Part shown: positions 18,009-57,009 of the stretch, piece after piece
How the letters are laid out: each line of letters opens with the position of its first letter
How positions within the stretch are numbered: the stretch's first letter is position 1
NCBI RefSeq assembly: GCF_015999335.1
Contig: NZ_JAEACP010000011.1
Span: 125,048 to 183,349, forward strand
Source: Tabrizicola soli
GTDB taxonomy: Bacteria > Pseudomonadota > Alphaproteobacteria > Rhodobacterales > Rhodobacteraceae
Direction of reading: 5' to 3'
DNA length: 58,302 nt
Position numbers and translations under genes: made by a program
The notes under the pieces: generated by a model
What the model was told of the DNA's origin: nothing
Seen by the model: only the letters and a program-made list of their open reading frames with translations
Database searches by the model: none

Positions 18009-18018
18009 GCGAATGTCC

Positions 18019-18049: not shown

Positions 18050-18092
18050 GGAGGCTGACCCGATTCGGACAAGGTGAGGGAAGGCGCAGCAA

Positions 18093-34552: not shown

Positions 34553-35830
34553 TCAGATCACGAACACCGGCGCGAACCCGCCCCCTGGCGTCCTGAAGTT
34601 CGTGGTTTGACCTTGATAAAGGCGCGCGGCCACCAGAAGCACCTGCCCATCATAGGTATACAGTCGCACGTCCATTTTGCGCCTCTGGGGTGTCTCGTCG
34701 ATCTTGATCATGCGCTCGCTGGGGCGGACCAGCGTCTGAGCAACGTATCCGCCCTCCGCGATTTCCGCCCAGACTCCTTTTGTCAGCTTGTCGCCGCGAT
34801 ATACCGCCTTGCCGCCATGTCCGCCGGTCGGCTTGAAGAACAGGTCCTTGCGGGATCTCCAAAGTGCATCAGCGTTGTCGGGATTGACCAGGACGGTGCG
34901 TGGCACAGCATCGAGCAGGGCGCGAAATCTCGGCTCCACTCCCCATGCCTCAAGCGTCGCGGCATTCGAAAGAAGCGAAAGGTTGCGCTTGTCGGCAAGG
35001 AGCGCGTGGTTGTGCGGATTCGGCGTCACGACCACCGCGCCATCCCGGTAGGCTTCCTGCAGTGCCTTGTGCTCGGGCTGATCGAAGGCGAAATCGGTGA
35101 CCCGGTTGTAAACGAGATCGATTGCCTTTCCATCGACGCTGAGCCGACCATCGTCGTAGCGAAGGCGACCGGCGTCGGCGATGACCGCGTCTACTCCTCG
35201 TGCCGCGAAAACCTGCCGCGCGAGCACGAACTCGGGATAGAGATACTGTTCCGGCGGACTGTCATCGACGATGGCGATGCGTTGTGGCGCGCCCGTTCCC
35301 CGCTGCCGAATCCATTCGTTCTGGAACATGTGGAACGCCGCGTCCTCGAAGGATAGCAGCGTCGGGGGGATGTCCATTTCGGCGCAACACGCGCGCTGCG
35401 CCCTCGCAAGAAAGGCATTGAGAAACGCGCCGCCGGCGTTGGTGTTGATTTCGATCAACCGGGGGCCGTCTTCACCAAGATGAAAGTCGTAGCCCATCAA
35501 AGCCCCGAGCGGGCCGTGATCCGCCCGCGCGATTTCCGGCGCCCAGGAGAGGACTGCGGCCTTGTATGTCGCGAGTTGGGCGGTGGTCTCCACGGCCACT
35601 GCGATCGCGCGCATCTCATCCACCGTGGTGGCCGAAAGGAACACTGGCACGTGCGAGAACAGATGGGCTTTGGGGCGGATGAACGTCTCGAAGAACGCCG
35701 ACTCACCAGCCTCGTGCTCCATCGCTTCGCGCAGCGATGGAACGTCCAGTGTAACGCAGAAGCAGTTCTTGTTGAGCCGCTCCGTGCGGTCCTGAACTCG
35801 ATCCGATGAACTGGAGCCCGGATTGTTCAT
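34553..35830 (-). CDS. Uncharacterised ATP-grasp-like protein
   Basis: 425 residues with no named family that I recognise. ATP-grasp features are visible: LIEINTNAGGAFLNAF in the first half, DLFFKPTGGHGGKAVYRGDK (nucleotide-binding, Gly-rich with Lys), and a C-terminal KMDVRLYTYDGQVLLVAARLYQGQTTNFRTPGGGFAPV, like the metal-binding DxR...N strands of glutathione-synthetase-like ligases. It may ligate a carboxylate to an amine. The start overlaps the preceding small gene by 4 bp (ATGA). Confidence 0.7.
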   Translation of the reverse strand: MNNPGSSSSDRVQDRTERLNKNCFCVTLDVPSLREAMEHEAGESAFFETFIRPKAHLFSHVPVFLSATTVDEMRAIAVAVETTAQLATYKAAVLSWAPEIARADHGPLGALMGYDFHLGEDGPRLIEINTNAGGAFLNAFLARAQRACCAEMDIPPTLLSFEDAAFHMFQNEWIRQRGTGAPQRIAIVDDSPPEQYLYPEFVLARQVFAARGVDAVIADAGRLRYDDGRLSVDGKAIDLVYNRVTDFAFDQPEHKALQEAYRDGAVVVTPNPHNHALLADKRNLSLLSNAATLEAWGVEPRFRALLDAVPRTVLVNPDNADALWRSRKDLFFKPTGGHGGKAVYRGDKLTKGVWAEIAEGGYVAQTLVRPSERMIKIDETPQRRKMDVRLYTYDGQVLLVAARLYQGQTTNFRTPGGGFAPVFVI

Positions 35831-37073: not shown

Positions 37074-38582
37074 ATGAATACCCTTTCAAGACGCGGCTTT
37101 CTTGCCGCTGGCGCAGCCGTGCTGGCCCATGCGCATCTGCCCCGCATCGCGGCAGCGCAGGGCTTGGCCCCGCTGTCGCTGCACGCCGCCACCCGGACGC
37201 TGGACATCGACGGCCGCGCTGCCACGGTCTGGGGTCTTGCCGGGCCGACCGGACAGGGCCTGACACTCGATCCCGGCGCGCGGTTCCGGGTGGATCTGCG
37301 TAACGATCTCGATGTCGACACGCTGATCCACTGGCACGGCCAGATCCCCCCCAACGCACAGGATGGCGTGCCCGACATGCCTCTGCCGATGCTCACCCCC
37401 GGCGAGACACGCGCCTATGACTTCGCGCCGCTTCCCGGCACCTATTGGATGCACGCGCATGTGCCGCTGCACGAGATGCGCCTCCTGGCGGCACCGCTGA
37501 TCGTGCGCAGCGCCGAGGATGTCGCCGCTGACCGGCAGGAGGTGGTGCTGTTCCTGCACGATTTCTCGTTCAAGGCGCCCGAGGAGGTGATGGCCGAGAT
37601 CACGGCCGGCCACGGGGCCGCGGGTGGGCACGGAGGCGATCAAGGCGCGAGCATGGGCGGCATGGCAGACATGGACCATGGCGCGATGGGAAACATGCCG
37701 ATGGCTGGCATGGATCACGGCGCCATGGGCGGCATGATGGGGATGGGGGCCATGGACGGCATGGCGATGGACCTCAACGACTATGACTGGGACGCCTATC
37801 TTGCCAACGACCGCACGCTTTCGGATCCCGAGGTGGTGCAGGTCGAGCGCGGCGGGCGCATCCGGCTGCGGGTGATTAACGCCGCCGCCGCGACGGTGTT
37901 CTGGATCGACACCGGGGCCGCGCCAGCGCGATTGGTGGCGGTTGATGGTCATGCCGTCGCACCACTATCCGAAACGCGGTTCGGTCTGGCTATGGGCCAG
38001 CGACTCGATCTCGAGATCGACCTGCCGCAGGAGGGCGGCGCTTGGCCGATCCTCGCGCTGCGAGAGGGCGCGCGCGAGCGCACCGGCCTGATTCTTGCCA
38101 CGCAGGGCGCCGAAATCCGGCGCATTGATGGCGTGGCGGAAAGCGAAGCACCCGCCTTCGACACCGACCTTGCGCAGGAGTCGCGACTGACCGCCGTCGA
38201 CACCTTGCCGGATCGGCCGGTGGACCGCAGCCACATTGTGATGCTGGGCGGTTCGATGCAGCCCTATGTGTGGACGATCAACGGTGCCGTCTGGGGCCAG
38301 CATCGCGCGCTTGCCGCACGCAGCGGCGAGCGGGTCGTGCTGTCCTTCCACAACATGTCGATGATGGGCCACCCGATGCATCTGCACGGACATGTGTTCC
38401 AAGTCGTCGGGTTGAACGGACGCGCGGTCCGGGGCGCGCTGCGCGACACGGTGTACGTGCCGCCGATGTCGATGGTCGATATCGCGCTCGACGCCGGCGA
38501 GGCCGCGCGCTGGATGCTGCATTGCCACCACATGCCGCATCTTGAGACCGGCATGATGACCGAGTTCACGGTCAGCGCATAA
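37074..38582 (+). CDS. Multicopper oxidase (CueO/CopA-like)
   Basis: 502 residues with a Tat signal (LSRRGFLAAGAAVLA), so it is exported folded. Copper sites: HWHG and WMHAH (cupredoxin 1), then HPMHLHGH and HCHHMPHLETGM (cupredoxin 3), the latter holding the type 1 Cys, His and Met ligands. A Met/His/Asp-rich insert (MADMDHGAMGNMPMAGMDHG and following) resembles the cuprous-oxidase regulatory segment. It probably oxidises Cu(I) to Cu(II) in the periplasm. A hairpin terminator follows. Confidence 0.94.
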   Translation: MNTLSRRGFLAAGAAVLAHAHLPRIAAAQGLAPLSLHAATRTLDIDGRAATVWGLAGPTGQGLTLDPGARFRVDLRNDLDVDTLIHWHGQIPPNAQDGVPDMPLPMLTPGETRAYDFAPLPGTYWMHAHVPLHEMRLLAAPLIVRSAEDVAADRQEVVLFLHDFSFKAPEEVMAEITAGHGAAGGHGGDQGASMGGMADMDHGAMGNMPMAGMDHGAMGGMMGMGAMDGMAMDLNDYDWDAYLANDRTLSDPEVVQVERGGRIRLRVINAAAATVFWIDTGAAPARLVAVDGHAVAPLSETRFGLAMGQRLDLEIDLPQEGGAWPILALREGARERTGLILATQGAEIRRIDGVAESEAPAFDTDLAQESRLTAVDTLPDRPVDRSHIVMLGGSMQPYVWTINGAVWGQHRALAARSGERVVLSFHNMSMMGHPMHLHGHVFQVVGLNGRAVRGALRDTVYVPPMSMVDIALDAGEAARWMLHCHHMPHLETGMMTEFTVSA

Positions 38583-38827: not shown

Positions 38828-39883
38828 ATGGCCGAGCAAGCTAGAACGCGTGTCGCTGTCAACGGCTACGGAGTGATTGGCAAGCGGGTCGTCGATGCTA
38901 TTGCTCTCCAAGACGATATGGAGCTGGTCGGCATCGCCGACGTTGCATTCGATTGGCGCATTCAAGTGGCGGCGCGCAAGGGCTATGCCATCTTCGCCGC
39001 TACGGAAGAACGGCTTGAGCCGATGCGCAAGGCGGGGCTCGACGTCGCGGGTGCCCTTGGCGATTTACTTGGAACCGCCGACGTGGTCGTCGACTGCACG
39101 CCGAAAAACGTCGCCGCGAAGAATGTCACAATCTACCGGAAGAAGAACGTGAAGTTCATCCTCCAGGGCGGCGAGAAGCACGAGGTCACCGGCCATTCCT
39201 TCGTCGCTGACGCCAACTACGAGAGTGCGATCGGCCGGGACTCCACTCGCGTCGTCTCGTGCAACACGACGTCGACGGTCCGCACGCTGACGGCGCTCAA
39301 GCACGCCGGGCTGCTCCGGAAGGCCCGCGGGACTTTGCTGCGGCGCGCCACTGACCCATGGGAAAGCCATCTCGGCGGCATCATGAACACACTGGTGCCC
39401 GAACCCGAAATCCCAAGCCATCAAGGACCTGACGCGCAGAGCGTCGACCCCGAGCTGGACGTCCTGACGATGGCGGTGAAGGTGCCGCAAACGCTGGCGC
39501 ATCTGCACTACTGGACTGTGCAGCTGACCGGCGCCGCGAGCAAAGACGAAGTACTCAACGCGTTCCGCGCCTCGTCGCGGATCGCACTCGTCGAGATTGG
39601 CGACGGCCTCTCGGCGATTAACGCCGTCAAGGAAATGATGGCCGACCTCGGGCGCCCCCACGATAATCTCTACGAGGTGGCGCTCTGGGCCGACATGCTG
39701 AAGGTCGAGGGCGACGAGCTCTTCTACGCCTACATGGTCGACAACCAGGCGATCGTGATCCCCGACACGATCGACGCCATCCGCGCCCTGACCGGCCGGG
39801 AACGCGATGCAAAGCGCTCGATCGCCGCGACGGACCGCTCACTCGGCGTCGGCGCGATCACCGATGCCCTTGGGCGAGGCTGA
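38828..39883 (+). CDS. gap: Type II (archaeal-type) glyceraldehyde-3-phosphate dehydrogenase
   Basis: 351 residues starting at an ATG behind AAAGGAGTGAAG. The Rossmann start is RVAVNGYGVIGKRVVDAIALQ; the catalytic Cys lies in SCNTTSTVRTL; the C-terminal NLYEVALWADMLKVEGDELFYAYMVDNQAIVIPDTIDAIRA is typical of the archaeal phosphorylating form that can use NADP. This form is rare in bacteria and distinct from the ordinary gapA family. With the phosphoketolase gene downstream it could handle the triose phosphate released there. Transfer is likely. Confidence 0.93.
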   Translation: MAEQARTRVAVNGYGVIGKRVVDAIALQDDMELVGIADVAFDWRIQVAARKGYAIFAATEERLEPMRKAGLDVAGALGDLLGTADVVVDCTPKNVAAKNVTIYRKKNVKFILQGGEKHEVTGHSFVADANYESAIGRDSTRVVSCNTTSTVRTLTALKHAGLLRKARGTLLRRATDPWESHLGGIMNTLVPEPEIPSHQGPDAQSVDPELDVLTMAVKVPQTLAHLHYWTVQLTGAASKDEVLNAFRASSRIALVEIGDGLSAINAVKEMMADLGRPHDNLYEVALWADMLKVEGDELFYAYMVDNQAIVIPDTIDAIRALTGRERDAKRSIAATDRSLGVGAITDALGRG

Positions 39884-40096
39884 CCGATGTCCGCCCTAGA
39901 CCCATTCCTGTCGCGGACGCGCATCGCGTTCACGATGAGATGGTTTCTAGCGGAAAGCACCTGTTTGATGGCCTCGGATCGCTCGGCGCAATACAGCCCG
40001 GTTGCTCGCCGCCTATCCCAAGTACAGCATCACACCGATACGCAAGAGCAACGCTATCTCGCGGCTCTGCCGCACAAGTAACGATAGGGACAACTG

Positions 40097-42211
40097 ATGA
40101 GTTCTCCACACTCCCACCATCATGGCCATCAGAACCATCAGGCGGATGCGAGCGTGCATCATGATGGAGAAGGCCCACGCGGTGACTCGCAAATTCTAGC
40201 CGCCGCCGGCTCCAGCCATTCCGAGCATGCCGGCCACGCCGGACATGATCATGGTGAGATGGTCGCCGACTACCGGCGCCGCTTCTGGCTGGTTCTGTTA
40301 CTGACGCCGCCGATCTTGTTGCTTTCGCCGATGATCCAGCATTGGCTTGGCATCGCAGAGACTCTGGCGTTCCCCGGCGACCGCTACGTCATCTTCGTGC
40401 TCTCAACAATTGCGTACCTTTATGGCGGATGGCCGTTTCTGACGGGCTTTACCTCCGAGCTGCGCAAAAGGCAGCCCGGCATGATGACCCTGATCGCGCT
40501 GGCGATCTCGGCCGCCTATTTCTTCTCGGTCGCCGTAACGTTCGGCTTTCCGGGCGAAGAACTTTACTGGGAACTGGTGACCCTCATCGCGATCATGCTG
40601 CTCGGTCACTGGATCGAGATGCGTTCGATCATGGGAGCATCGCGCGCGCTTGAGGAACTCGTGCGGCTCCTTCCGGATTCGGCCACCCGGATAAGGCCCG
40701 ACGGATCCGCGGAGGAGGTGCCAATCTCAACCCTCCAGCCCGGTGACAAGGTCATCGTACGGCCCGGTGCAAAGGTTCCGGTGGACGGCGAGATCATCGA
40801 GGGCTCGTCCGGTTTCAACGAGGCCATGCTCACCGGCGAATCGCGGCCAGTAACCAAGGGGGTCGGCGCCGCCGCCATCGGCGGCGCCATAAACGGGGCC
40901 AGCGCCGTGACCATAAAGGTAACGGCGACAGGCGACGCCACCTACCTGTCGCAGGTCATCGAACTCGTAAAGAAGGCGCAGGCGACGCGATCGCGGACTC
41001 AGGACGTCGCCAACCGTGCGGCCGCCTGGCTGACCTACATAGCACTCATCGTGGGCTTCGGCACGCTGTTCGTCTGGTGGCTTTTCCTCGACGCGCCCCT
41101 CGAGTTTGCCATCGAGCGCATGGTGACGGTCATGGTCGTTGCCTGCCCCCACGCCCTCGGTCTCGCTGTCCCGCTGGTCGTCGCGGTCAGCACGTCGCTG
41201 TCGGCCGGCAACGGGCTGCTGATCCGCGACCGCGCAGCCTTTGAGCGGGCGCGCAACCTCAACGCGGTCGTGTTCGACAAGACCGGCACATTAACCGAGG
41301 GTCGTTTCGGTATCAGCGATATCGTATTGCTTGCCGAGGGTGACGAAAACGAGGAACTCAGCTTCGCTGCGGCCGCCGAGAGCCAGTCCGAGCATCCCAT
41401 CGCCCACGGCATCGTGGCCGAGGCGAAGGAACGAAGCCTGGTCATTCCCAGTGCAACTGACGTTAGCAACATCACCGGCGAAGGCATCGTGGCCAAGGTG
41501 GACGGCCAGGATGTGCGTATCGTCAGCCCTGGCCACCTGGCACGACAGGGCAATGCTATCGCCCATAACAGCCTCAAGCGACTGGAAGGACAGGGCAAGA
41601 CAGTCGTCGTTCTCGTCCGCGACGGCGAGCCGCGGGCACTCTTTGCGCTGGCTGATATCGTTCGTCCGGAATCGAAGGAGGCCATTGCAGAACTCAAGTC
41701 CCTCGGGATCAGCTCGATGATGCTCACCGGTGACGCCGAGGGCGTTGCAAAAACGGTCTCGGATGAACTCGGAATCACCGAATACTTCGCCGAAGTGCTG
41801 CCTGATCAGAAATCGCAAAAGATCGAGGAACTCCAAGCACGAGGGCTCTCCGTGGCCATGGTCGGCGACGGGGTGAATGACGCGCCTGCGCTCGTGATGG
41901 CCGATCTCGGGATCGCCATCGGCGCGGGCACCGATGTTGCCGTCGAATCGGCCGACGTGGTTCTCGTGCGCAGCGACCCGAGCGACGTCGGCGCGATCCT
42001 TGGTCTCTCGCGCGCCACTTACCGCAAGATGGTCCAGAACCTCGTCTGGGCGACCGGGTATAATGCGATCGCCATCCCGATGGCAGCCGGCATTACCTTC
42101 GGGACCGGCTTCATGATGACCCCTGCTGTTGCGGCTGTCTTCATGTCGGCCAGCACCATCATCGTGGCCATCAACGCCCAGTTCCTGCGCTCCTACAGGA
42201 GGCACAAATGA
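40097..42211 (+). CDS. copB: CPH-type P1B-3 metal ATPase (CopB-like)
   Basis: 704 residues. The N-terminal ~55 residues are His-rich (SSPHSHHHGHQNHQ... SEHAGHAGHDHGEM) in place of an HMA domain. Actuator TGES, the transmembrane metal site ACPHALGLAVPL (CPH), DKTGTLTEG, SEHPIAHG and MVGDGVNDAPAL are all intact. CPH pumps export Cu2+ or Ag+ (and in some cases Cu+) across the inner membrane. Its stop overlaps the PRPP synthase start (ATGA), an unusual coupling of a metal pump with a nucleotide-precursor enzyme. Confidence 0.94.
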   Translation: MSSPHSHHHGHQNHQADASVHHDGEGPRGDSQILAAAGSSHSEHAGHAGHDHGEMVADYRRRFWLVLLLTPPILLLSPMIQHWLGIAETLAFPGDRYVIFVLSTIAYLYGGWPFLTGFTSELRKRQPGMMTLIALAISAAYFFSVAVTFGFPGEELYWELVTLIAIMLLGHWIEMRSIMGASRALEELVRLLPDSATRIRPDGSAEEVPISTLQPGDKVIVRPGAKVPVDGEIIEGSSGFNEAMLTGESRPVTKGVGAAAIGGAINGASAVTIKVTATGDATYLSQVIELVKKAQATRSRTQDVANRAAAWLTYIALIVGFGTLFVWWLFLDAPLEFAIERMVTVMVVACPHALGLAVPLVVAVSTSLSAGNGLLIRDRAAFERARNLNAVVFDKTGTLTEGRFGISDIVLLAEGDENEELSFAAAAESQSEHPIAHGIVAEAKERSLVIPSATDVSNITGEGIVAKVDGQDVRIVSPGHLARQGNAIAHNSLKRLEGQGKTVVVLVRDGEPRALFALADIVRPESKEAIAELKSLGISSMMLTGDAEGVAKTVSDELGITEYFAEVLPDQKSQKIEELQARGLSVAMVGDGVNDAPALVMADLGIAIGAGTDVAVESADVVLVRSDPSDVGAILGLSRATYRKMVQNLVWATGYNAIAIPMAAGITFGTGFMMTPAVAAVFMSASTIIVAINAQFLRSYRRHK

Positions 42212-43242
42212 CGACCAGAAGCGAATCCTTGGAAGCTCGTGCCATGCGACTGATCCTTCCCTTGCCGGGTAACGAAACGTTCGCGCGCCGTCTCGCTGAC
42301 GAAGGAGGATGGGAATTGGGTGCGCTGGAAACGCGGCGTTTTCCTGATGGCGAGACTTACGTCCGCCTTCTCTCGGAGGTGAAAAATAAGGTAGTCGACT
42401 TGGTTTGCACGCTAGCGCGTCCCGACGATGGTTTTCTACGGTTGATCTTCGCGGCGGATGCAGCCCGGGACTTGGGGGCCAGTCAGGTGAACCTGATCGC
42501 CCCCTACCTCTCCTACATGCGGCAGGATCGCCGCTTCCAACGGGGAGAGGCGGTCACCTCCAAGAGCTTCGCGCGGCTTGTCTCGGCCAGCTTCGACCGG
42601 TTGGTGACCGTAGATCCGCATCTCCATCGCTATGCGGCGTTGTCGCCTCTCTACACGATCCCGACAGATACACTGCATGCCGCGCCGCAGCTGGCGCACT
42701 GGATCGCCGCAGAAGTCGACAAGCCCCTGATCATAGGTCCTGACGAGGAAAGCGACCAATGGGTCTCGGCCATCGCGGCACGTATCGGTGCTCCGCACGC
42801 CGTGCTTCGCAAGGTGCGCCATGGCGACCGCAATGTTGAAGTTAAGCTGCCGGACCTTTCCGAGTGGCGCGGGCTCCAGCCGGTGCTCGCCGACGATATA
42901 GCATCGTCGGGGCATACGCTGATTGAGGCTGCCCGCCAGCTTCCGCTGCAGGGCTTCGTTCGGCCCGTGGTTGCCGTGGTGCATGGGATATTCGCCGACA
43001 ATTCCTTTGAGCGCCTCGCTGCTCTTTGTGACCGCATCGTCTCGACCGACTCCGTGCCCCACGAAAGCAATGCCGTCCGGCTCGCCTCCCTGGTCGCCAA
43101 GGCAGTTGCCGCTGCGCCCGACGATGAGGGCGATCTCATCAGGCATCGGCGTCCGCCGGAACCAATAGACGAAGTGGAACAGGCGGGTTTGGACTCCTTT
43201 CCGGCGAGCGATCCGCCATCCTGGACCGGGGGCGTTACCTGA
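42208..43242 (+). CDS. prs: Ribose-phosphate diphosphokinase with SFPASDPP tail
   Basis: 344 residues. It makes PRPP from ribose-5-phosphate and ATP. FPDGETYVRL, YLSYMRQDRRFQRGEAVTSKSFA and the PRPP loop LADDIASSGHTLIEAA are visible. The catalytic flexible loop has the basic residues LRKVRHGDRNVEV. The C-terminus carries an extra tail, DEVEQAGLDSFPASDPPSWTGG, a motif I recall as a short appended module on assorted alphaproteobacterial stress proteins. The family length is about 310, so the tail accounts for the excess. Coupled to copB by ATGA. Confidence 0.9.
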   Translation: MTTRSESLEARAMRLILPLPGNETFARRLADEGGWELGALETRRFPDGETYVRLLSEVKNKVVDLVCTLARPDDGFLRLIFAADAARDLGASQVNLIAPYLSYMRQDRRFQRGEAVTSKSFARLVSASFDRLVTVDPHLHRYAALSPLYTIPTDTLHAAPQLAHWIAAEVDKPLIIGPDEESDQWVSAIAARIGAPHAVLRKVRHGDRNVEVKLPDLSEWRGLQPVLADDIASSGHTLIEAARQLPLQGFVRPVVAVVHGIFADNSFERLAALCDRIVSTDSVPHESNAVRLASLVAKAVAAAPDDEGDLIRHRRPPEPIDEVEQAGLDSFPASDPPSWTGGVT

Positions 43243-43275
43243 CAACGAGAGCAATTTGGTGAAAGCGGTGACGAC

Positions 43276-45645
43276 ATGAACGAGTTCACAACGGCGACCT
43301 CAGAAGCATGGCGGCAGGGATATGGCCTGATCAGCCACAACGATGAGACGATTGAACGCGTAGCTTTGCTGGCGGCGTCCGGCCTGATCGAACAGGAGGC
43401 CCTCTATCGTATCCTTGCCGCAGCGGACCGGCTGACTTCCGCCGCAATGTGGACAGTTGTCCACATGACCTATGCCCAACGTGTCGACCTTTCGGGCGCG
43501 CCGCTGCCTGCCGAGGCGTTCAAGCCGACGCCCGAGGGCCACACCGGCGGCTCGCTCAACATGGTGCCCGCTTTCGTCGGCTATCTCGCGGCCAACGCGA
43601 TCACCGCGAAAACCCGTTCATGGATGATGGGGCAAGGCCATTCTGTCGCTGCGATCGAAGCGATAAATGCGCTGACGGGGGACGTTTCTCCTGCACAGAG
43701 GGGCCGCTACGATAGCAGCGAGAGAGGACTTTCGCAGCTAGCGGCCGATTTCTATTCCTATGCCATCGACGCCGACGGCGCTGCCGCGGTCCCGCTCGGC
43801 AGCCATGCCGGGCCGAACACCGCTGGCGCCATCTCGGAGGGCGGCTATCTCGGCTTCGCCGAAGTCCAGTACGCCCATGCGCCGCTGCCGGGCGAAAGCC
43901 TCGTCGCCTTCCTGAGCGACGGGGCCTTCGAAGAGCAGCGCGGCTCGGACTGGACGCCCCGGTGGTGGCGCGCTGAAGATTCTGGCCTCCCAATTCCAGT
44001 CATGATCCTCAACGGCCGGCGCATCGAGGAACGTGCCCAAATCGCGCAGCAGGGCGGTGCGGACTGGCTCGTCGACCACCTGAAGCTGAACGGTTTCGAT
44101 CCCTTCATCATCGATGGCCGTGATCCCGCAGCCTTCGCCTGTGCGATCATTGAGGCTGAAAGGCGACTTGAACGCTTCGCAGCCGATCCTGGCCGCACCT
44201 ATCCGGCTCCCGTTCCCTATGTCATTGCCGAGTCGGTCAAAGGCTTCGGCTTTCCAGGCGCCGACACCAACGCGGCGCACAATCTACCGCTCGGCGGCAA
44301 TCCCTCTCAGGACCAGCCGGCGAGAGACGCCTTCAACGAGGCGGCGCAAACGCTGTTCGTTCCCGCCGGGGAGATCGAGAGCGCCGTCGCTGAAATCGCC
44401 GTTTACGGCAAGCAGGGACGGGAGCCGGAAAGCCGGCATGCGCTCGCGCTGCGCAACCCGGCCGCACCTGACCTGCCCGAGCCGGACTGGACGGTCGCCG
44501 GCGATCCGCCCGATTGCGCGATGCATGCGCTCGACCGCTGGTTCGCCCGCGTCGTGGACGCCAACCCTGCGCTCCGCCCGCGTGTGGGCAATCCCGACGA
44601 GTTACGCTCCAACCACATGGGAGCCACGCTCGACCGGCTGCGCCATCGCGTGAATACCACTGAGCCCGGCGTTGCCGACGCGATCGACGGTGCAGTCATC
44701 ACCGCGCTCAATGAGGAAGCGGTCGCGGGCGCGGCGCTGGCCAACAAGGGCGGGATCAATCTGATCGTCAGCTACGAAGCCTTCGCCATGAAGATGCTTG
44801 GTGGTGTGCGGCAGGAGATCGTCTTTTCCCGGCGGCAGCGGGAGGCCGGCCAGGAGCCGCGCTGGATTTCGGTTCCCCTGGTCGTCACTTCCCATACCTG
44901 GGAGAACGCGAAGAACGAACAGTCACATCAGGACCCGACCATTGGCGAGGCGCTGCTGGGCGAGATGTCCGACACCTCGCGGGTGCTTTTCCCGGTGGAT
45001 GCGAACAGCGCCATGGCTGCGCTCCGATCCATCTACGAGGGTCGCGGTCAGGTGGGGTGCCTGATCGTCTCCAAGCGCGACATGCCGCACCGCTTCGATG
45101 CCGAGGCCGTCGAGCGTTTCGTAACCGACGGTGCCGCCCATGTGCAGGGCGAGACGGAAGGAGCCGAGCTCCAAATCGTGGCGATCGGCGCCTATCAGCT
45201 TGAGGAGGCCCTCAAGGCGGCCTATCGGCTCCGGAGCCATGGTCGCCATGTGCTAGTGACCGCGGTCTCCGAGCCGGGTCGCTTCCGCATGCCCCGTGAT
45301 CCCATCGAGGCCGCTTTCACAGCGAGCGACGAGAACCTGGCTGCCCTGTTTCCGCCGGGCATTCCCCGCCTGATCGTTTCCCATACGCGACCGGAACCCA
45401 TGCTCGGCCTGCTCCGGCGAGTGGACTCCGGCCCGCGGACGACGGCCGCCCGCGGCTACATCAGCCGGGGCGGCACACTGGACGTGCCAGGGATGCTGTT
45501 TGCCAATCGCTGCACCTGGGCGCATCTGATCGACGCTGCTGTTCCTCTCACTGGGTGGAGCAGGGATGACCTTCTTGCTCCCGATGAACGGGACGCCGTG
45601 GAAGGCCGCGGAAATCCCGCTGACATCGCTGCATTCAACATCTGA
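43276..45645 (+). CDS. xfp: Phosphoketolase (xylulose-5-P/fructose-6-P)
   Basis: 789 residues, full length. This ThDP enzyme cleaves xylulose-5-phosphate or fructose-6-phosphate to acetyl phosphate plus glyceraldehyde-3-phosphate or erythrose-4-phosphate. The TPP region is visible (GSLNMVPAFVGYLAANAITAK, MGQGHSVAAIEAINA, LVAFLSDGAFEEQRGSDWTPRWW). The central domain carries NEEAVAGAALANKGGINLIVSYEAFAMKM and SHTWENAKNEQSHQDPT. The C-terminal region is intact. It follows prs by 33 bp and is probably in the same transcript. Confidence 0.93.
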   Translation: MNEFTTATSEAWRQGYGLISHNDETIERVALLAASGLIEQEALYRILAAADRLTSAAMWTVVHMTYAQRVDLSGAPLPAEAFKPTPEGHTGGSLNMVPAFVGYLAANAITAKTRSWMMGQGHSVAAIEAINALTGDVSPAQRGRYDSSERGLSQLAADFYSYAIDADGAAAVPLGSHAGPNTAGAISEGGYLGFAEVQYAHAPLPGESLVAFLSDGAFEEQRGSDWTPRWWRAEDSGLPIPVMILNGRRIEERAQIAQQGGADWLVDHLKLNGFDPFIIDGRDPAAFACAIIEAERRLERFAADPGRTYPAPVPYVIAESVKGFGFPGADTNAAHNLPLGGNPSQDQPARDAFNEAAQTLFVPAGEIESAVAEIAVYGKQGREPESRHALALRNPAAPDLPEPDWTVAGDPPDCAMHALDRWFARVVDANPALRPRVGNPDELRSNHMGATLDRLRHRVNTTEPGVADAIDGAVITALNEEAVAGAALANKGGINLIVSYEAFAMKMLGGVRQEIVFSRRQREAGQEPRWISVPLVVTSHTWENAKNEQSHQDPTIGEALLGEMSDTSRVLFPVDANSAMAALRSIYEGRGQVGCLIVSKRDMPHRFDAEAVERFVTDGAAHVQGETEGAELQIVAIGAYQLEEALKAAYRLRSHGRHVLVTAVSEPGRFRMPRDPIEAAFTASDENLAALFPPGIPRLIVSHTRPEPMLGLLRRVDSGPRTTAARGYISRGGTLDVPGMLFANRCTWAHLIDAAVPLTGWSRDDLLAPDERDAVEGRGNPADIAAFNI

Positions 45646-45652
45646 GGCAATC

Positions 45653-46300
45653 ATGCTGACGCTAACCTCTCTCGGCGGCGCAAGCACCGTCACCGGCTCC
45701 AAACACCTCCTTACCAACGGCGACAAGCGCATCCTGATCGATTGCGGCCTTTTCCAGGGGCTCAAGAACCTGCGCGAGTTGAACTGGGCGCCGCTGCCAG
45801 TGCCGCCGTCCAGCATTGATGCCGTGGTGCTCACCCATGCCCACCTCGACCATTCGGGCTATCTCCCGCGACTGGTGCGCGATGGATTCAGGGGTCGGAT
45901 CTACGCCACCGCGGCGACACGAGACGTGGCGGAGTTGATCCTCAAGGACAGCGGCTTTCTCAACGAAAAGGATGCCGAATACGCCAATCGGAAGGGCTTC
46001 TCCAAGCACAAGCCGGCTTTACCGCTTTACGGCGTGCGCGATGCGGAACGCGCCATGGCAATGTTCACCATTGTGCCGTTCCAAGACGCCTTTGAGCTTC
46101 CAGGCGGTGCGACCCTGACGTTCCGCTATGCGGGTCACATTTTGGGTGCGGCTAGCGCCGACATCGAATGGGGCGGTCGCCGTATTGCGTTTTCTGGTGA
46201 CCTTGGGCGCTACGGCGACCCTTTGGAGCCTTTTGCTTCTGGGGCTTGCACTCCTCGTAGTTGCCGCATTGATCAAGTACGTATTCTTCCGCTGACGTAG
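45653..46300 (+). pseudogene. Truncated MBL-fold (beta-CASP-like) hydrolase
   Basis: From MLTLTSLGGASTVTGSKHLL, with VVLTHAHLDHSGYLPRLVRDG giving the HxHxDH metal site and RYAGHILGAASADIEWGGRRIAFSGDLGRYGDP. Homologues are about 450-540 residues and continue into the beta-CASP and RNA-specificity parts; here native sequence ends near 46215. The DNA then reads, in another frame, WSLLLLGLALLVVAALIKYV plus FFR-stop, the tail of a small membrane protein, followed by phage DNA on the other strand. Two junctions therefore lie within 100 bp. Confidence 0.88.
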
Positions 46301-46304
46301 CGCT

Positions 46305-47204
46305 TCGATCGAGCTGAGGGGCGCTACTGCGGCGTTTGCTGCTGCCCTCGCAGAAGCCGCGAGCCGATCTGCCTCTGCGCTCGCCTCCGCAGCCGCGCCA
46401 GCCGTTTCGTAGAAGGCAGACCCGGCGCTAACCGCCGCTCCATAGACGCCAAGCATGGTGGACTCCATGCCTGGAATGCCGTCGAGGCCGCGCGCCACGG
46501 CGTGCAGGAAGTCCGCCCACGTCTTCTGGATCTTTTGGAGCGCTGAAAGCCAGCCCGCGCGAATGGAAGCCCACACGGATTGGAGGGAGAGCGAAAGCGA
46601 CTCTCCGCCCAGCTTGATCCGGTCCCAGACCTCCGAGGCGACATCGCCAAGCAAGGCCATCGCATTGGCCCGCGACAGCCGCGCGCTCTGCGGCAGGCAC
46701 GAAGTTCTCGATGGCGGCGTTGATCGCACCCACGCGCTGGTCCAGCGGCAGCGCGATCAACTCTGATGCGGAAAGCCCCAGCCGGTCGAACGCGTCGGCA
46801 GCGGGACCGGTCCCGGCGGCCGCCTGGCTGAGACGGCGCGTCAGATCCTTGGTGGCCTGCTCGATGCCGGACATCGACACGCCCGCCAACTCGCCCGCCC
46901 GCTCCAAGGTCTGGATCGAGGCGACGGTGGTGCCGAGCGACTGCGCGAGCTTGGCCTGCGCATCGACGGTCTGGAGGCCGGAGCGGATCATCGCCACGCC
47001 AGCGGCAGCTGCGGCTCCAACTGCGGCGGCGGCCGCGACCCGCACCCGCCGCGAGAAGGCCGCGAGCCGTGCGTTCGCCGCTACCATCTCCCGGCTCAGC
47101 CGTCCAAAGCCGCGCGATCCGGCCTCGCCGACGCCTTCCAGTTCGGCGCGCACCTGCCGTCCGCCCACGGCCGCGAGGCGGACGGACACTCGCTTTTCAG
47201 CCAT
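46305..47204 (-). pseudogene. Phage tail tape-measure protein, internally deleted and 3' truncated
   Basis: The N-terminal part (MAEKRVSVRLAAVGGRQVRAELEGVGEAGSRGFGRL..., SGLQTVDAQAKLAQSLGTTVASIQTLERAGEL) is a typical start of siphophage tape-measure proteins. Near 46690 the frame shifts. The continuation (SRANAMALLGDVASEVWDRIKLGGESLSLSLQSVWASIRAGWL) belongs to a much later part of such proteins, so a large internal piece is deleted. It ends near 46305 where MBL-gene DNA begins. These proteins set tail length and are usually over 600 residues; the copy is non-functional. Confidence 0.8.
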
Positions 47205-47274
47205 TGGTCAGAGTCCTTGCTTTCGCCGCACCGGCGTCTTACGTTTTAGGCATCGATTACATGAGGGTATGACC

Positions 47275-47487
47275 ATGGCCGAGACCGCGACCCTGTCCTC
47301 GAAGTTCCAGATCTCGATCCCCAAGGCGATCCGCGCGGCGCAGCACTGGGAGGCCGGGCTGACCTTTGCCTTCATCCCGAAAGGCACGGGCGTCCTGCTG
47401 GTGCCTGTGCCCAAGCGGGAGGCGCTGAAGGGGCTCGCGCGCGGCGCGTCCGCCACCGATTATCGCGACCGGACGGATCGGCTCTGA
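47275..47487 (+). CDS. AbrB/VapB-type antitoxin
   Basis: 70 residues from ATG 47275, chosen because GAGGG lies 7 bp upstream (the Met at 47269 is too close). ATLSSKFQISIPKAIRAAQHWEAGLTFAFIPKGTGVLLVPV is the swapped-hairpin SpoVT/AbrB domain of VapB antitoxins. It ends in a toxin-binding tail (LARGASATDYRDRTDRL). It overlaps the toxin start by one base and is encoded opposite to the surrounding phage tail genes. Confidence 0.9.
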   Translation: MAETATLSSKFQISIPKAIRAAQHWEAGLTFAFIPKGTGVLLVPVPKREALKGLARGASATDYRDRTDRL

Positions 47488-47867
47488 TGATCCTCGTCGA
47501 CACGTCGGCGTGGATCGAATGGCTGATCGGCTCACCAACGGGTGAGAAGATGTCCGGGCAATTGCCCGAACAGGCCGAGTGGCTTGTCCCGACCATGGTC
47601 CAGCTCGAGCTGGCGAAATGGCTGACCCGCGAGGTCGGCGAGGACAAGGCGGATCAGGTCATCGCGTTCACGCAGGTCTGCACTGTCGTTCCGCTCGATA
47701 CCGAGATCGCGCTCGCGGCGGCGGAGGCGTGCCGGGAGCATAAGCTGGCAACCGCCGACGCCATCATCTTCGCAACTGCACGGGCCCAAGGCGCGACGCT
47801 TCTGACCTGCGACGCGCATTTCGAGGGGCTGCCCGGCGTCTCGCTGATCGAGAAGATCAAGACCTGA
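47487..47867 (+). CDS. vapC: VapC-type PIN-domain RNase toxin
   Basis: 126 residues. The PIN fold has its acidic residues: MILVDTSAWIEWL (Asp5), VQLELAKW (Glu), ATADAIIFATARAQGATLLTCDAHFEGLPGV (two Asp). VapC toxins cleave tRNA or rRNA and halt translation when VapB is degraded. It converges with the tail-chaperone gene, overlapping it by 11 bp. It lies as a 'moron' between the chaperone and tape-measure genes of a prophage remnant. Confidence 0.92.
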   Translation: MILVDTSAWIEWLIGSPTGEKMSGQLPEQAEWLVPTMVQLELAKWLTREVGEDKADQVIAFTQVCTVVPLDTEIALAAAEACREHKLATADAIIFATARAQGATLLTCDAHFEGLPGVSLIEKIKT

Positions 47868-48536
47868 CACCGCTGCCGCCATTCGCGGCCAGTTCCTCGT
47901 TCAGCTTGGCGACCATCACCGCTTCGAGGACGGGCAGCAGTTCGGCCATGGCGAGCGGCGGCACGCCGAGCGCGTCACCGAGCGCCAGCGCCGCCGACAT
48001 GTCCCAGCCGATCACAGCGCCGGGCAGCACACGCAGCTGGCCGCCGAGACGGCCGACCAGGTCCCAGACCTGCCAACCCTCCGGCGTTTCCGGACGGTTC
48101 AGCCGCGTCGGGCAGTCCGGGCAGGTTTGCGCGCAGGCTTCGCAGTAGCGCTCGCCCCCGCCGAAGGACCATTCGGCGAGGGCGCGGAGGCGTTTTTTTC
48201 CTGCTCCAGAAGCAGGCCCTTCGAGACGTAGGTCAGCTGGAACGCCTCGAAGATCGGCCAGATGTCGAGCAGCGCGTCGATGGCCTCCGGGCTCGGGTCG
48301 ATAGGCTTGCTGTCGGCGTTGCCGATGCCCTCCCAGGCGAGCACCGCCCGCCGCGCCAGCGCCTTGGCGAAGGCGACGGCGCGTTCCTCGTCGGAGGCAT
48401 TGTCCGGCATGGCCTCGACGGCCGGATCGCTCCGGGTCGCGACCATCAGGGCGGTGGTCAGCGGGCGCAGCTGCACCCGCACGCCCGGGGCAAGGTCGTG
48501 CCAGCGGGGCGCGTTGGTCAGGTCGAGCGTGAGCAT
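47857..48536 (-). CDS. Tail assembly chaperone fusion made by -1 frameshift (GT-like)
   Basis: If ribosomes slip back one base at 48198-48192, translation passes from the G frame into a second open frame: KKRLRALAEWSFGGGERYCEACAQTCPDCPTRLNRPETPEGW and on to ELAANGGSGVRS, about 226 residues in total. The downstream part has no start codon of its own near the junction but is clearly protein-like, with CEAC and CPDC pairs that may bind zinc. The arrangement matches the lambda G/GT mechanism, where the two forms load the tape-measure protein during tail assembly. Confidence 0.8.
48099..48536 (-). CDS. Phage tail assembly chaperone, zero-frame product (G-like)
   Basis: 145 residues. MLTLDLTNAPRWHDLAPGVRVQLRPLTTALMVATRSDP and the central helix region are typical of siphophage tail chaperones. 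They sit between tail tube and tape measure, the position of lambda gpG. The gene overlaps the tube stop by one base (TGATG). After residue 114 the frame meets an A AAA AAC slippery site; ribosomes that do not slip make this form, which ends in a Ser/Ala/Lys-rich tail. Confidence 0.8.
   Translation of the reverse strand: MLTLDLTNAPRWHDLAPGVRVQLRPLTTALMVATRSDPAVEAMPDNASDEERAVAFAKALARRAVLAWEGIGNADSKPIDPSPEAIDALLDIWPIFEAFQLTYVSKGLLLEQEKNASAPSPNGPSAGASATAKPARKPARTARRG
48192..48198 (-). promoter_or_regulatory. Programmed -1 frameshift slippery heptamer A AAA AAC
   Basis: On the minus strand the heptamer reads A AAA AAC in correct phase with the chaperone reading frame (codons GAA AAA AAC), the X XXY YYZ pattern of efficient -1 sites. 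It sits within a run of seven A. The shift joins two otherwise separate open frames. Confidence 0.85.
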
Positions 48537-49477
48537 CAGTACACCTCAATGTCATTGATCAGGGTTGCGGTGCACATCCGGCCAACGACGCTGTCGCGCG
48601 CCGCCTGCCAGTCGAAGGTGGCCTGAACGCCCTGCGGCCCCGAGATCTCGATGCGCGGGCGCGGCAGGTAGACGGCGTGCACGGTGAAGGTGAAACTCTC
48701 TCCGGAGGGTAGCGAATAACCGAACTCGAGTTCGCAGGCCTCGCCGTTGATGGCCTGCGTCACCAGCGTGCTGTCGGCGAAGCGCACCTCAATGGAGCCG
48801 GTCAGTGCCGCGATGGACGGGTCCGCGCCGTCGATGCGACCGTCGTTCCGGATGGTCTCGATCCGGTCGAGGTTGTTCGCGTAGGTGATGTCGGCCGAGA
48901 CCACATTGCCAAGCGGGGAGCCATTCCGGGTCATCGCGCCGTTGAAATGCCCAAAGCGTTTCAGTTCGAGCGCGGCAGGAGTTCCCGCGCTGGTGGTCGT
49001 GCCCACCGTCTCGCCCTGCGCGACCAGCCGCGCCGTCGCGGTCAGCAACCCCGAGCGCTGCATCTGCCAGGTGATCTGGTCGAGGACGCAGCCCGAATAC
49101 ATCGCGTAGCGCGGCACCTCGGGCATGCCCGTCTCGATCGACATCGAGGGCAGCGTCCAGGACCCCGACTGGAACTCGTGGCTGTATGGGGCTTCCGCGC
49201 CGGTGGTCGTCGGCGTGCCGAAGGCCGCCTTCAGCCAGAAGCCGAAGGCCTCTGCGTCGAGCGGCAACACGACATCGCCGTCGGCCGTCACCGCGTCCTT
49301 GATCGGCGCCAGCGGATCGCGTCCGTAGCCGAGCAGTTCCGAGTTCAGCAGCGGCTGCTCCGCGCCGAGCGAGGTGCTGGCGAAGGGCATGCGGGTGAAG
49401 CCGCTGGCGGGCGGCGTTCCATAGGTGGTCTCGAACGCAAGCGCCATCAGCGCCCGCGCCCCCTGGGCTCGTGCCAT
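48536..49477 (-). CDS. Phage tail tube protein
   Basis: 313 residues: MARAQGARALMALAFETTYGTPPASGFTRMPFASTSLGAEQ is a start I associate with tail tube proteins of alphaproteobacterial siphophages. The rest is beta-rich (DAVTADGDVVLPLDAEAFGFWLKAAFG, YANNLDRIETIRNDGRIDGADPSIAALTGSIEVRFAD). It would polymerise into the tail tube. Gene order terminator - tube - chaperone - tape measure supports the call. Apparently intact. Confidence 0.82.
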   Translation of the reverse strand: MARAQGARALMALAFETTYGTPPASGFTRMPFASTSLGAEQPLLNSELLGYGRDPLAPIKDAVTADGDVVLPLDAEAFGFWLKAAFGTPTTTGAEAPYSHEFQSGSWTLPSMSIETGMPEVPRYAMYSGCVLDQITWQMQRSGLLTATARLVAQGETVGTTTSAGTPAALELKRFGHFNGAMTRNGSPLGNVVSADITYANNLDRIETIRNDGRIDGADPSIAALTGSIEVRFADSTLVTQAINGEACELEFGYSLPSGESFTFTVHAVYLPRPRIEISGPQGVQATFDWQAARDSVVGRMCTATLINDIEVY

Positions 49478-49501
49478 GTTCGTCTCCTATGATCGGTTGG
49501 G

Positions 49502-49918
49502 TCAGGCCAGCTGGTCGGCCGTGGAATAATGCAGCACCACCGGGATGACGGCAGCCTTCAGGCTGGCCGCGCCCTCGACCGGCAGATCGACCGGGCGCGG
49601 CGCTTCCGCCTCGACCCAGTCGCAGAGGCCGCCGAGTGTGCGGTCGATCGAGAGCGCAGCCCCGATGCTGGCGATCAGCGTGTCGAAGTCAGCGTCACGG
49701 TCGGTGCCCTGCACGACCGCCTCGATCTCGGCGCGGTGCTGATAGTGGTAGGCGAGCGGCGACAGCGTCACTTCGGGCTCTCCCGGCTCGCCATCGCGCA
49801 GGATCAGCAAGCCATTGGTCGGTACGCGCTCGGGCAGGACGTCGCCGCGCAGGGCGGTGGCAGGCAGCGCCGAGAGCCGCGTGTGCAGCGCGGCGAGGAT
49901 GGTTTCGCGAGGGGTCAT
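49502..49918 (-). CDS. Phage tail terminator-like / tail completion protein
   Basis: 138 residues from ATG 49918 (MTPRETILAALHTRLSALPATALRGDVLPERVPTNGLLILRDG). Its place directly before the tube gene, its length and the AEIEAVVQGTDRDADFDTLIASIGAAL segment fit a tail terminator (lambda gpU-like). Its ATG overlaps the merR stop (ATGA), so the phage block starts exactly where the mercury module ends; upstream head genes are missing. Confidence 0.7.
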   Translation of the reverse strand: MTPRETILAALHTRLSALPATALRGDVLPERVPTNGLLILRDGEPGEPEVTLSPLAYHYQHRAEIEAVVQGTDRDADFDTLIASIGAALSIDRTLGGLCDWVEAEAPRPVDLPVEGAASLKAAVIPVVLHYSTADQLA

Positions 49919-50340
49919 GGATTGGCGGACCTGGAAATTGCGTCGAGCACCGGACAGTCCGGAACCTCGGCGCCCGAACACTTGGATGCGGTCTCGGTGA
50001 GGACGATTTCGATGCGCCTGAGATCCGCGATCCTCGCGCGGACATCGGCAAGGTGGCGCTCGGTCCGCTCCTTGACCTCTGCGCAAGTTGGCGCGGCACC
50101 GTCTTCGAGCCCCATGAATCCGCGGATGTCCTCCATCGAGAACCCGAGTTCGCGCGCGCGCAGGATGAAGCGCAGGCGCGTGGCATGCACAGAGGAGTAG
50201 ATGCGGTAGCCTGCGCCCGTCCTGGGCGGGTCGGGCAGCAGGCCAGTCTTCTCGTAATAGCGAATCGTCTCGATGTTGCAGTCGGTCGTCCGAGCTAGGT
50301 CTCCGCGTGTAAGGCCGCTCTCGCTCTCGTGATCGGTCAT
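49915..50340 (-). CDS. merR: Mercury-responsive regulator MerR
   Basis: 141 residues. N-terminal helix-turn-helix: GLTRGDLARTTDCNIETIRYYEKTGLLPDPPRTGAGYRIY. The three Hg ligands of MerR are in place: Cys near 82 (APTCAEVKERTE), and two in KCSGAEVPDCPVLDAI. It activates the divergent mer genes when Hg(II) binds and represses itself otherwise. The last residues (SRSANP) and the stop lie on the phage boundary and may not be native. Confidence 0.93.
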   Translation of the reverse strand: MTDHESESGLTRGDLARTTDCNIETIRYYEKTGLLPDPPRTGAGYRIYSSVHATRLRFILRARELGFSMEDIRGFMGLEDGAAPTCAEVKERTERHLADVRARIADLRRIEIVLTETASKCSGAEVPDCPVLDAISRSANP

Positions 50341-55743: not shown

Positions 55744-55757
55744 GGGGACTCTCCTCA

Positions 55758-56411: not shown

Positions 56412-56544
56412 GGGCTCGGTTCCTTTCGCTGGAGGCTGGGCATGCAAAAACCCACCTGCGGAGCGGGCTCGCGGGTCGGTCTGGATTGTCCCCGGGCCGG
56501 GTCGCCGAGTGTCGACCTGGCGCTCGCGCCAGGATGCCTGCGGC

Positions 56545-57006: not shown

Positions 57007-57009
57007 GGA

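What the first reader, a model, noticed from the sequence alone, without database searches (positions are those of the whole stretch)
38828..46215. Possible metal-linked pentose-phosphate module: archaeal-type GAPDH, CPH ATPase, PRPP synthase, phosphoketolase, MBL nuclease
Type II GAPDH is rare in bacteria. Here it lies with phosphoketolase (giving acetyl phosphate and triose phosphate), PRPP synthase, and a copper-type ATPase whose stop overlaps the prs start (ATGA). I recall similar neighbourhoods in other alphaproteobacteria. A shared stress role is plausible: bypassing metal- or oxidant-sensitive glycolytic GAPDH while making acetyl-P and PRPP.
Basis: inference. Interest (0 to 1): 0.75.

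Follow-up and report, generated by a model that had tools for sequence, protein, structure and literature searches.

The report
Truncated copy of nucleotide-ribose salvage operon
The genes form a real, recurring bacterial gene cluster, here missing its end, that probably breaks down RNA building blocks for energy when oxygen is scarce, and it contains a look-alike of a well-known enzyme that may do a different, undescribed reaction.

Summary
In detail: type II GAPDH, a CPH P-type ATPase, a PRPP-synthase-like (PRS-like) gene, a divergent phosphoketolase and the first ~190 codons of a beta-CASP RNase gene lie head to tail at 38828-46221. The cluster is cut off there by a prophage fragment. Relatives (Paracoccus sp. 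WLY502 and others) continue with the whole RNase and an archaeal-type nucleotide phosphorylase; this genome keeps PRS-RNase-phosphorylase elsewhere, beside arginine deiminase genes.
The neighbourhood recurs, but the strongest link is of prs with the absent phosphorylase: 36 of 36 PRS-like genomes among 299 Pseudomonadota carry it, and 19 of 37 fetched pairs overlap by 4 bases. The PRS-like proteins keep the PRPP-synthase catalytic residues, but a loop reads PDxES instead of PDxGG. In 4 of 12 genomes where the phosphorylase lacks PRS-like, it is fused to or beside PhnN, which turns ribose-1,5-bisphosphate into PRPP. In published data a like-named triad rises at 0.5% oxygen in Bradyrhizobium.
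I therefore favour low-oxygen nucleotide-ribose catabolism through ribose-1,5-bisphosphate over a metal or oxidant bypass. No reaction has been assayed; the window copy shows no oxygen-responsive site, and the ATPase's role is unexplained.

The parts
37074..38582 (+). multicopper oxidase, upstream neighbour; a relative lies upstream of GAPDH in L008 too
   Evidence: Pfam Cu-oxidase domains; TIGR01480 179 bits, below its cut-off 479; L008 order
38828..39883 (+). type II (archaeal-type) GAPDH
   Evidence: NF003251 449 bits, TIGR01546 335 bits, both over cut-off; closest solved chain 1cf2, 292 bits
40097..42211 (+). P1B-type ATPase with CPH motif and His-rich N-terminus
   Evidence: TIGR01511 585 bits; a P-type ATPase adjoins PRS-like in 6 named loci plus the window, the CPH motif being read in 5 of the 6
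42208..43242 (+). PRPP-synthase-like protein of subfamily PRK07199, loop PDEES in place of PDxGG
   Evidence: NF005537 429 bits; comparison of 46 PRS-like with 12 ordinary PRS
43276..45645 (+). divergent phosphoketolase
   Evidence: Pfam XFP and XFP_N over cut-off; GQGH, PDE and SHQDP motifs present
45653..46221 (+). 5' part of a beta-CASP MBL ribonuclease gene; homology ends at 46221, the chimeric frame runs to 46300
   Evidence: intact relative in L008 17125-18570 and on this genome's contig C11 (L007 5207-6571)
46222..47204 (-). broken prophage tail tape-measure gene that abuts the truncated RNase gene
   Evidence: phrog_8462, profile positions 2-178 of 672 only; junction
34553..35830 (-). 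ATP-grasp-like gene of unknown function that recurs near type II GAPDH
   Evidence: a cluster of such genes occurs in 23 of 83 loci clustered; 87% DNA identity in L008; PF14403 21 bits, below cut-off 32

Best explanation
The window holds a 3'-truncated copy of a recurring operon for catabolism of nucleotide-derived ribose, probably under low oxygen. Full order in relatives: CPH ATPase, PRS-like, phosphoketolase, beta-CASP RNase, nucleotide phosphorylase, with type II GAPDH beside it. Proposed flow: (1) RNase releases NMPs from RNA [inferred]; (2) the archaeal-type phosphorylase splits NMP + Pi to base + ribose-1,5-bisphosphate (R15P) [inferred from family and motif]; (3) the PRS-like enzyme takes R15P onward, to PRPP and/or ribose-5-phosphate [inferred from the near-obligate pairing, its altered loop, and PhnN as partner in other lineages]; (4) ribose-5-P becomes xylulose-5-P by housekeeping enzymes and phosphoketolase yields acetyl-P + glyceraldehyde-3-P [inferred]; (5) type II GAPDH oxidises the triose [family function]. 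Shown: gene order, co-occurrence, conserved and changed residues, PhnN fusions; microoxic induction of a like-named triad is published. Sub-estimates: NMP-derived ribose via R15P 0.75; PRS-like acting on R15P itself 0.5; phosphoketolase and GAPDH using the same carbon 0.55; ATPase part of the function 0.25.
For: PRS-like in 36 of 299 Pseudomonadota genomes, all 36 with the phosphorylase, which is in 39 of 299. In 144 Alphaproteobacteria 9 of 10 PRS-like genomes carry it (18 of 144 overall), within 1.5 kb in all 9: directly adjacent in 8, only the RNase between in the own genome. Of 38 fetched PRS-like loci 37 have it, all on the same strand, 19 overlapping by exactly 4 bases; RNase in 21 of 38. 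All 46 PRS-like proteins compared (46 of 51 hits; 4 partial pieces and 1 ordinary PRS left out) have Glu where all 12 ordinary PRS have Gly, with the catalytic residues kept. The phosphorylase carries KTSSRAITSxAGTAD, as in archaeal AMP phosphorylase, in 41 of 46, unlike this genome's DeoA. R15P isomerase over cut-off in 0 of 55 phosphorylase-bearing genomes. Of 12 phosphorylase genomes without PRS-like, 3 have PhnN fused and 1 beside it; of 43 with PRS-like, 10 have a PhnN over cut-off and none within 20 kb. Full operon in named genomes. Arginine deiminase, ornithine carbamoyltransferase and carbamate kinase adjoin PRS-RNase-phosphorylase on C11. Microoxic rise of bll3115, bll3116, bll3117 and a phosphoketolase bll2518.
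Against: I ran no enzyme assay and saw none for the bacterial pair. The phosphorylase scores 471 bits against AMP_phos, below the curated 535. In 8 of the 12 phosphorylase-only genomes neither PRS-like nor a linked PhnN was found. Most PRS-like loci lack phosphoketolase (3 of 38 have it), GAPDH (0 of 38) and ADI genes (0 of 38), so steps 4-5 hold only for a subset. No FNR box lies upstream of the window copy. In the 144-genome sample type II GAPDH and PRS-like coincide only in this genome. The Bradyrhizobium triad is known to me by product name and gene order, not sequence; it is in that paper's looser list (log2 change of at least 1 at both levels), not among the 62 significant proteins, and is not marked as a FixK2 target.
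Confidence: 0.57

Rival explanations
1. Base recycling: PRS-like is an ordinary PRPP synthase that makes PRPP so that bases released by the phosphorylase are rebuilt into nucleotides; the pair is a salvage device and not an energy pathway.
For: All PRS catalytic residues are conserved; fusion of the phosphorylase to PhnN, a PRPP-forming enzyme by family name, also points to PRPP as a product.
Against: This genome has an ordinary PRS elsewhere (contig C9), so a second with an altered loop is not needed for supply; the operons with phosphoketolase point to carbon catabolism.
Confidence: 0.27
2. One reading: a metal-linked stress module that bypasses metal- or oxidant-sensitive glycolytic GAPDH.
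For: The window also holds a Zn/Cd-type ATPase and a mercuric reductase; P-type ATPase near type II GAPDH in 58 of 80 loci and multicopper oxidase in 17 of 80, against 11 of 38 and 1 of 38 PRS-like loci.
Against: PRS-like and phosphorylase mostly occur without metal genes (ATPase of at least 40% identity in 2 of 38 loci); the published rise of the like-named triad is at low oxygen; ADI genes lie near type II GAPDH in 22 of 80 loci.
Confidence: 0.12
3. GAPDH and ATPase are hitch-hikers: only PRS-like, phosphoketolase, RNase and phosphorylase are functionally linked, and the rest sits with them because islands are mosaic.
For: GAPDH lies 213 bases upstream of the ATPase and elsewhere occurs with other partners; the GAPDH paralogue on C11 sits about 12 kb from PRS-RNase-phosphorylase beside another ATPase.
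Against: The ATPase overlaps or abuts PRS-like in 6 named loci plus the window; GAPDH and the PRS-phosphorylase pair meet in 9 of 80 loci from several families.
Confidence: 0.3

Closest known systems
Archaeal NMP shunt / pentose bisphosphate pathway (NMP phosphorylase, R15P isomerase, Rubisco)
   Same: Homologous NMP phosphorylase with nearly the same KTSSRAITSxAGTAD stretch; same presumed product R15P (passages of PMC9700705)
   Different: No R15P isomerase over cut-off in 55 genomes; a PRS-like protein, or in some genomes PhnN, is the partner
PhnN, ribose-1,5-bisphosphokinase (R15P to PRPP; family name, passage of PMC9700705)
   Same: Found fused to, or beside, the same kind of phosphorylase in other genomes, so it points to R15P as the shared intermediate
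   Different: Guanylate-kinase-like family, not PRS; in the window the partner is PRS-like
NARP1 Adps/Namat of phages (passages of PMC12774641)
   Same: Two-gene unit in which an enzyme that parallels PRPP synthetase works on a different ribose phosphate next to a partner that handles the base
   Different: Different partner and pathway; NARP1 rebuilds NAD+
Ordinary PRPP synthase (NF002095, TIGR01251 families)
   Same: Family score and the shared invariant residues, including the lysine and arginine K202 and R204
   Different: PDxGG to PDxES, plus invariant R141 and conserved W185 (window numbering), and near-strict linkage to a phosphorylase
FNR/FixK2/Anr microoxic gene sets
   Same: ADI pathway and CBS neighbours of type II GAPDH; like-named triad and phosphoketolase rise at 0.5% oxygen in B. 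diazoefficiens
   Different: No such box upstream of the window copy; the triad is not marked as a FixK2 target in that table

Membership tests
Type II GAPDH (NF003251 / TIGR01546) | score over curated cut-off | tested here: met
   449 against 185 and 335 against 232.9 bits
Type II GAPDH (NF003251 / TIGR01546) | catalytic Cys in SCNTT | tested here: met
   SCNTT aligned in the 1cf2 alignment; that this Cys is catalytic is recalled
PRPP synthase subfamily PRK07199 (NF005537) | score over curated cut-off | tested here: met
   429 against 322 bits
Ordinary PRPP synthase | conserved PDxGG loop | tested here: not met
   Glu and Ser/Ala replace Gly-Gly; Glu in 46 of 46. That this loop contacts the pyrophosphate is recalled
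Ordinary PRPP synthase | PRPP formation from ribose-5-P + ATP | not testable with these tools
   needs an assay
Phosphoketolase (XFP) | XFP and XFP_N Pfam domains | tested here: met
   138 and 43 bits, both over cut-off
Phosphoketolase (XFP) | NCBIfam subfamily cut-offs | tested here: not met
   best 137 bits against 962
Copper-translocating P-type ATPase (TIGR01511) | score over curated cut-off | tested here: met
   585 against 397 bits; the metal itself is not tested
AMP phosphorylase (TIGR03327), protein on C11 only | score over curated cut-off | tested here: not met
   470.5 against 535; over cut-off for the wider NF003338 and TIGR02645
AMP phosphorylase (TIGR03327), protein on C11 only | archaeal-type KTSSRAITS motif in place of the DeoA motif | tested here: met
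   41 of 46 relatives; archaeal letters
Beta-CASP ribonuclease, window copy | Beta-Casp and RMMBL domains | tested here: not met
   truncated; both present in the C11 copy
FNR/Anr regulon | TTGATNNNNATCAA upstream of the module | tested here: not met
   none upstream in the window; present upstream of GAPDH in 7 of 9 Marinobacter loci

The most novel reading that the evidence does not exclude
The PRS-like family is a new enzyme of the ribose-1,5-bisphosphate node. For example it may catalyse R15P + ADP to PRPP + AMP, alone or followed by PRPP + AMP to ribose-5-P + ATP. Paired with the NMP phosphorylase it would save the glycosidic-bond energy of NMPs as ATP, and with phosphoketolase it would make an oxygen-free RNA-ribose fermentation in Proteobacteria.
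Probability: 0.25. Interest if true: 0.85.

Novelty: new variant of a known kind. Interest (0 to 1): 0.66.

Why it matters
A gene usually named ordinary PRPP synthase is, in this subfamily, almost strictly tied to an NMP-phosphorylase-type gene, and PhnN seems to take its place in some lineages. That predicts where ribose-1,5-bisphosphate goes in bacteria without R15P isomerase, a question that one purified protein could answer. It would also offer a function for a like-named triad that rises at low oxygen in Bradyrhizobium, and put 'thymidine phosphorylase' and 'ribose-phosphate pyrophosphokinase' labels of these subfamilies in doubt.

Tried and rejected
Metal-stress bypass as the main role: set back because the near-invariant partner of prs is the phosphorylase, not the ATPase. 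FNR control of the window copy: no box upstream. The excess of perfect boxes over 80 GAPDH loci (25, against 0-1 for each of 19 permuted palindromes and 1-3 in five Markov replicates) is only partly regulatory, since some lie inside genes (L008 5048, window 35445). R15P isomerase as the exit route: none over cut-off in 55 genomes. PhnN presence alone does not separate phosphorylase-only from PRS-like genomes (6 of 12 against 10 of 43, p = 0.09); only physical linkage does (4 of 12 against 0 of 43, p = 0.0015). In some genomes more PhnN candidates arose than the 50 scored, so misses are possible. The ordinary PRS used for comparison were picked with a pattern that requires Asp in DDxxD, so the Ser-for-Asp difference at 233 is built in; the PDxGG difference is not. 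p-values ignore kinship. No structure prediction or fold search was run. Literature: judged from their listings (searches listed 25 of 38, 15 of 202 and 12 of 15 papers) and the passages named in the report, showed no paper that joins AMP phosphorylase with a PRS-like protein or PhnN; a review on ribosyl 1,5-bisphosphate (PMC6383446, seen only as a reference) is not held.
Full report
WHAT IS THERE. The window is G000:C3:125048-183349 of a 57-contig genome. The five genes reported are real: type II GAPDH 38828-39883, CPH-type ATPase 40097-42211, PRS-like 42208-43242 (ATGA overlap), divergent phosphoketolase 43276-45645, and a beta-CASP MBL ribonuclease gene from 45653. The last is only a stump: DNA similarity to Paracoccus sp. 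WLY502 (L008, about 91%) and Pelagibacterium lentulum (L057, 82%) ends together at 46221, where a prophage tape-measure gene, itself reduced to profile positions 2-178 of 672, begins on the other strand. In L008 the operon goes on with the whole RNase (17125-18570) and a 509-residue phosphorylase (18567-20096). The missing 3' part was not found elsewhere in this genome: the RNase query finds, at E up to 1e-30, only the C11 copy and this stump, and the phosphorylase model finds the C11 gene and a DeoA-type gene.

SECOND LOCUS. On contig C11 the same genome has a GAPDH paralogue (74% DNA identity) beside another heavy-metal ATPase. About 8 kb further begins a run of arginine deiminase, ornithine carbamoyltransferase, carbamate kinase and a DUF6629 gene, followed, about 12 kb from the GAPDH, by PRS-like, intact RNase and phosphorylase. 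The C11 phosphorylase falls in a clade of ten (98/94 support), eight of whose operons carry the divergent phosphoketolase, so C11 looks like the same kind of operon without phosphoketolase; three other phosphoketolase-bearing loci (L046, L086, L119) lie outside that clade.

RECURRENCE AROUND TYPE II GAPDH. One scan of GTDB genomes with the window GAPDH gave 201 confirmed stretches, of which the best 80 were kept. Within up to 10 kb, with contigs often shorter: P-type ATPase 58 of 80, arginine deiminase 22, divergent phosphoketolase (at least 40% identity) 12, phosphorylase 10, PRS-like 10, RNase (at least 40%) 10, multicopper oxidase 17. PRS-like and phosphorylase together: 9 of 80 (L008, L009, L046, L057, L066, L079, L084, L085, L086); families as printed are Paracoccaceae, Devosiaceae, Sphingobiaceae, Hyphomonadaceae, Rhizobiaceae, Parvularculaceae and Marinobacteraceae (L009 is not in that tree). 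Other frequent neighbours, out of 83 loci clustered, are a cyclopropane-fatty-acid synthase (22), a D-2-hydroxyacid dehydrogenase (17), DUF3141 (13) and a DcuC-family carrier (24). Type II GAPDH itself is rare: over cut-off in 2 of 144 alphaproteobacterial genomes.

THE STRICT LINK. In 144 Alphaproteobacteria (class sample, at least 90% complete) PRS-like at 300 bits or more is in 10 genomes and the phosphorylase in 18; 9 of the 10 have both, directly adjacent in 8 and with the RNase between in the own genome. In 299 Pseudomonadota PRS-like is in 36, the phosphorylase in 39, and all 36 have both. Hypergeometric p is 8e-9 and 2e-43, ignoring kinship. I fetched 38 PRS-like loci: 30 of the 36 phylum genomes (not fetched: G315, G160, G180, G210, G240, and the own genome, already in hand) and 8 of the class. 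The phosphorylase is in 37 of 38 (not L145), same strand in 37 of 37, with a 4-base overlap in 19 of 37. The RNase is in 21 of 38 (14 at 40% identity or more). Phosphoketolase (3 of 38), multicopper oxidase (1), ADI (0) and GAPDH (0) are not part of this core, so the wide core is phosphorylase and PRS-like, often with the RNase, and the window type is an extended form.

WHAT IS ODD ABOUT THE PRS. Forty-six PRS-like proteins (of 51 hits; 4 partial pieces and 1 ordinary PRS left out) aligned with 12 ordinary PRS share F45, D47, E49, R105, Q106, D107, H138, P178, D179, K202, R204, D229, D230 and T237 (window numbering). The loop PDxGG of ordinary PRS is PDxES, rarely PDxEA: Glu in 46 of 46, the next residue Ser in 93%, W185 in 96%; R141 replaces Gln in 46 of 46. 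From memory this is the loop that holds the pyrophosphate of PRPP; if so the change sits where a monophosphate (R15P) would differ from PRPP. Some other differences (G113, E114, S233) are shared with the archaeal PRS 1u9y, the best solved relative; that of 233 was partly built in by the pattern with which I picked the ordinary PRS.

THE NATURAL REPLACEMENT. Twelve genomes had the phosphorylase without PRS-like (9 class, 3 phylum). PhnN, which by family name makes PRPP from ribose-1,5-bisphosphate, is over cut-off in 6 of 12; it is fused to the phosphorylase in 3 (L160, L161, L162; PhnN model 192, 169 and 164 bits over a cut-off of 156) and beside it in 1 (L163). Of 43 genomes with PRS-like, 10 have a PhnN over cut-off, none within 20 kb of the phosphorylase. 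A protein search with one fusion scored 7999 candidates and reported 2950 at E up to 1e-60; of the 120 listed, 119 are 677-702 residues long and align over 96-100% of the fused query, and where sources name them it is as PhnN, as thymidine phosphorylase, or (one) as a hypothetical or multifunctional protein. The three fusions form one branch (100/100) inside a supported group of 28 that also holds 17 PRS-linked and 8 other phosphorylases; the root and so the direction of change are not settled. Three phosphorylase-only genomes have the RNase beside it (L164, L165, L166). R15P isomerase is over cut-off in 0 of 55 genomes tested (18, 37); weaker matches occur in 10 of 18 and 19 of 37, which I take, from memory, for the related methylthioribose-1-phosphate isomerase.

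REGULATION. Perfect TTGATNNNNATCAA sites number 25 in the 80 GAPDH loci, against 0-1 for each of 19 permuted palindromes and 1-3 per Markov replicate. Upstream of GAPDH they are found only in Marinobacter (7 of 9 loci, near relatives); some others lie inside genes. In the 38 PRS-like and 2 further loci there are 4 perfect sites, none within 300 bases upstream of PRS-like, phosphorylase or RNase. The window module has none upstream. Published data carry the stronger argument: in Bradyrhizobium diazoefficiens at 0.5% oxygen, MBL-fold protein bll3115, ribose-phosphate pyrophosphokinase bll3116 and thymidine phosphorylase family protein bll3117 rise at protein level (log2 2.9, 4.4, 2.1) and transcript level (15.4, 7.7, 5.1 fold), as does a phosphoketolase bll2518 (4.3; 8.2 fold), whose subtype I do not know. 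They stand in the paper's looser list (log2 change of at least 1 at both levels), not among its 62 significant proteins, and none is marked as a FixK2 target (PMC6515984: section 18 part 1 and passages). That bll3116 is of the PDxES type is inferred from its position between the other two. A predicted FixK regulon also lists a phosphoketolase (PMC2908626, one passage).

MECHANISM. My reading: NMPs from RNA are split by the phosphorylase to base and R15P; PRS-like (elsewhere PhnN) brings R15P to PRPP and perhaps on to ribose-5-P; phosphoketolase and GAPDH draw carbon and energy from it in the extended operons. Gene anatomy and co-occurrence are shown here, the rise at low oxygen is published; every reaction is inferred from families. 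An enzyme that parallels PRPP synthetase but uses another ribose phosphate has a precedent in NARP1 (PMC12774641, passages). A 2026 preprint on PRPS evolution (PMC13252144, passages) has no occurrence of the word phosphorylase.

VERDICT. Observation confirmed; interpretation partly supported. The find is a truncated member of a recurring module whose core, an NMP-phosphorylase-type gene with a PRS look-alike, is well supported and, as far as the listings show in an open-access library, not described as such.

Noticed in passing
window 46222-50100 and 55500-58302, - strand: Prophage tail genes in the first block and phage-like genes by eye in the second, with a mercuric reductase and, by eye, a cation-ATPase and LysR gene (50.1-54.9 kb) between them; a mosaic or an assembly join.
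   Followed up: partly
window 39888-39950: By eye, the gap after GAPDH begins with a frame (MSALDPFL..RIAF) like the start of the carbohydrate-phosphorylase gene that follows GAPDH in L012; possibly a decayed remnant.
   Followed up: no
window 47300-47867, + strand: PIN-domain gene (PF01850) behind an AbrB-like stretch (by eye) next to the tape-measure fragment; VapBC-type pair.
   Followed up: partly
window 22473-24122: Large serine recombinase gene (Resolvase and Recombinase domains) near metal-resistance genes; candidate integrase of an island.
   Followed up: partly
L160, L161, L162: PhnN fused to an NMP-phosphorylase-type protein; frequent in protein databases under two different names.
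   Followed up: yes
L168-L171: Phosphorylase relatives whose sugar-phosphate motif has changed (no KTSSRAIT) with neither PRS-like nor linked PhnN; possibly another activity.
   Followed up: no
window 34553-35830: ATP-grasp-like protein of unknown role, in 23 of 83 loci near type II GAPDH and at 87% DNA identity in L008.
   Followed up: partly
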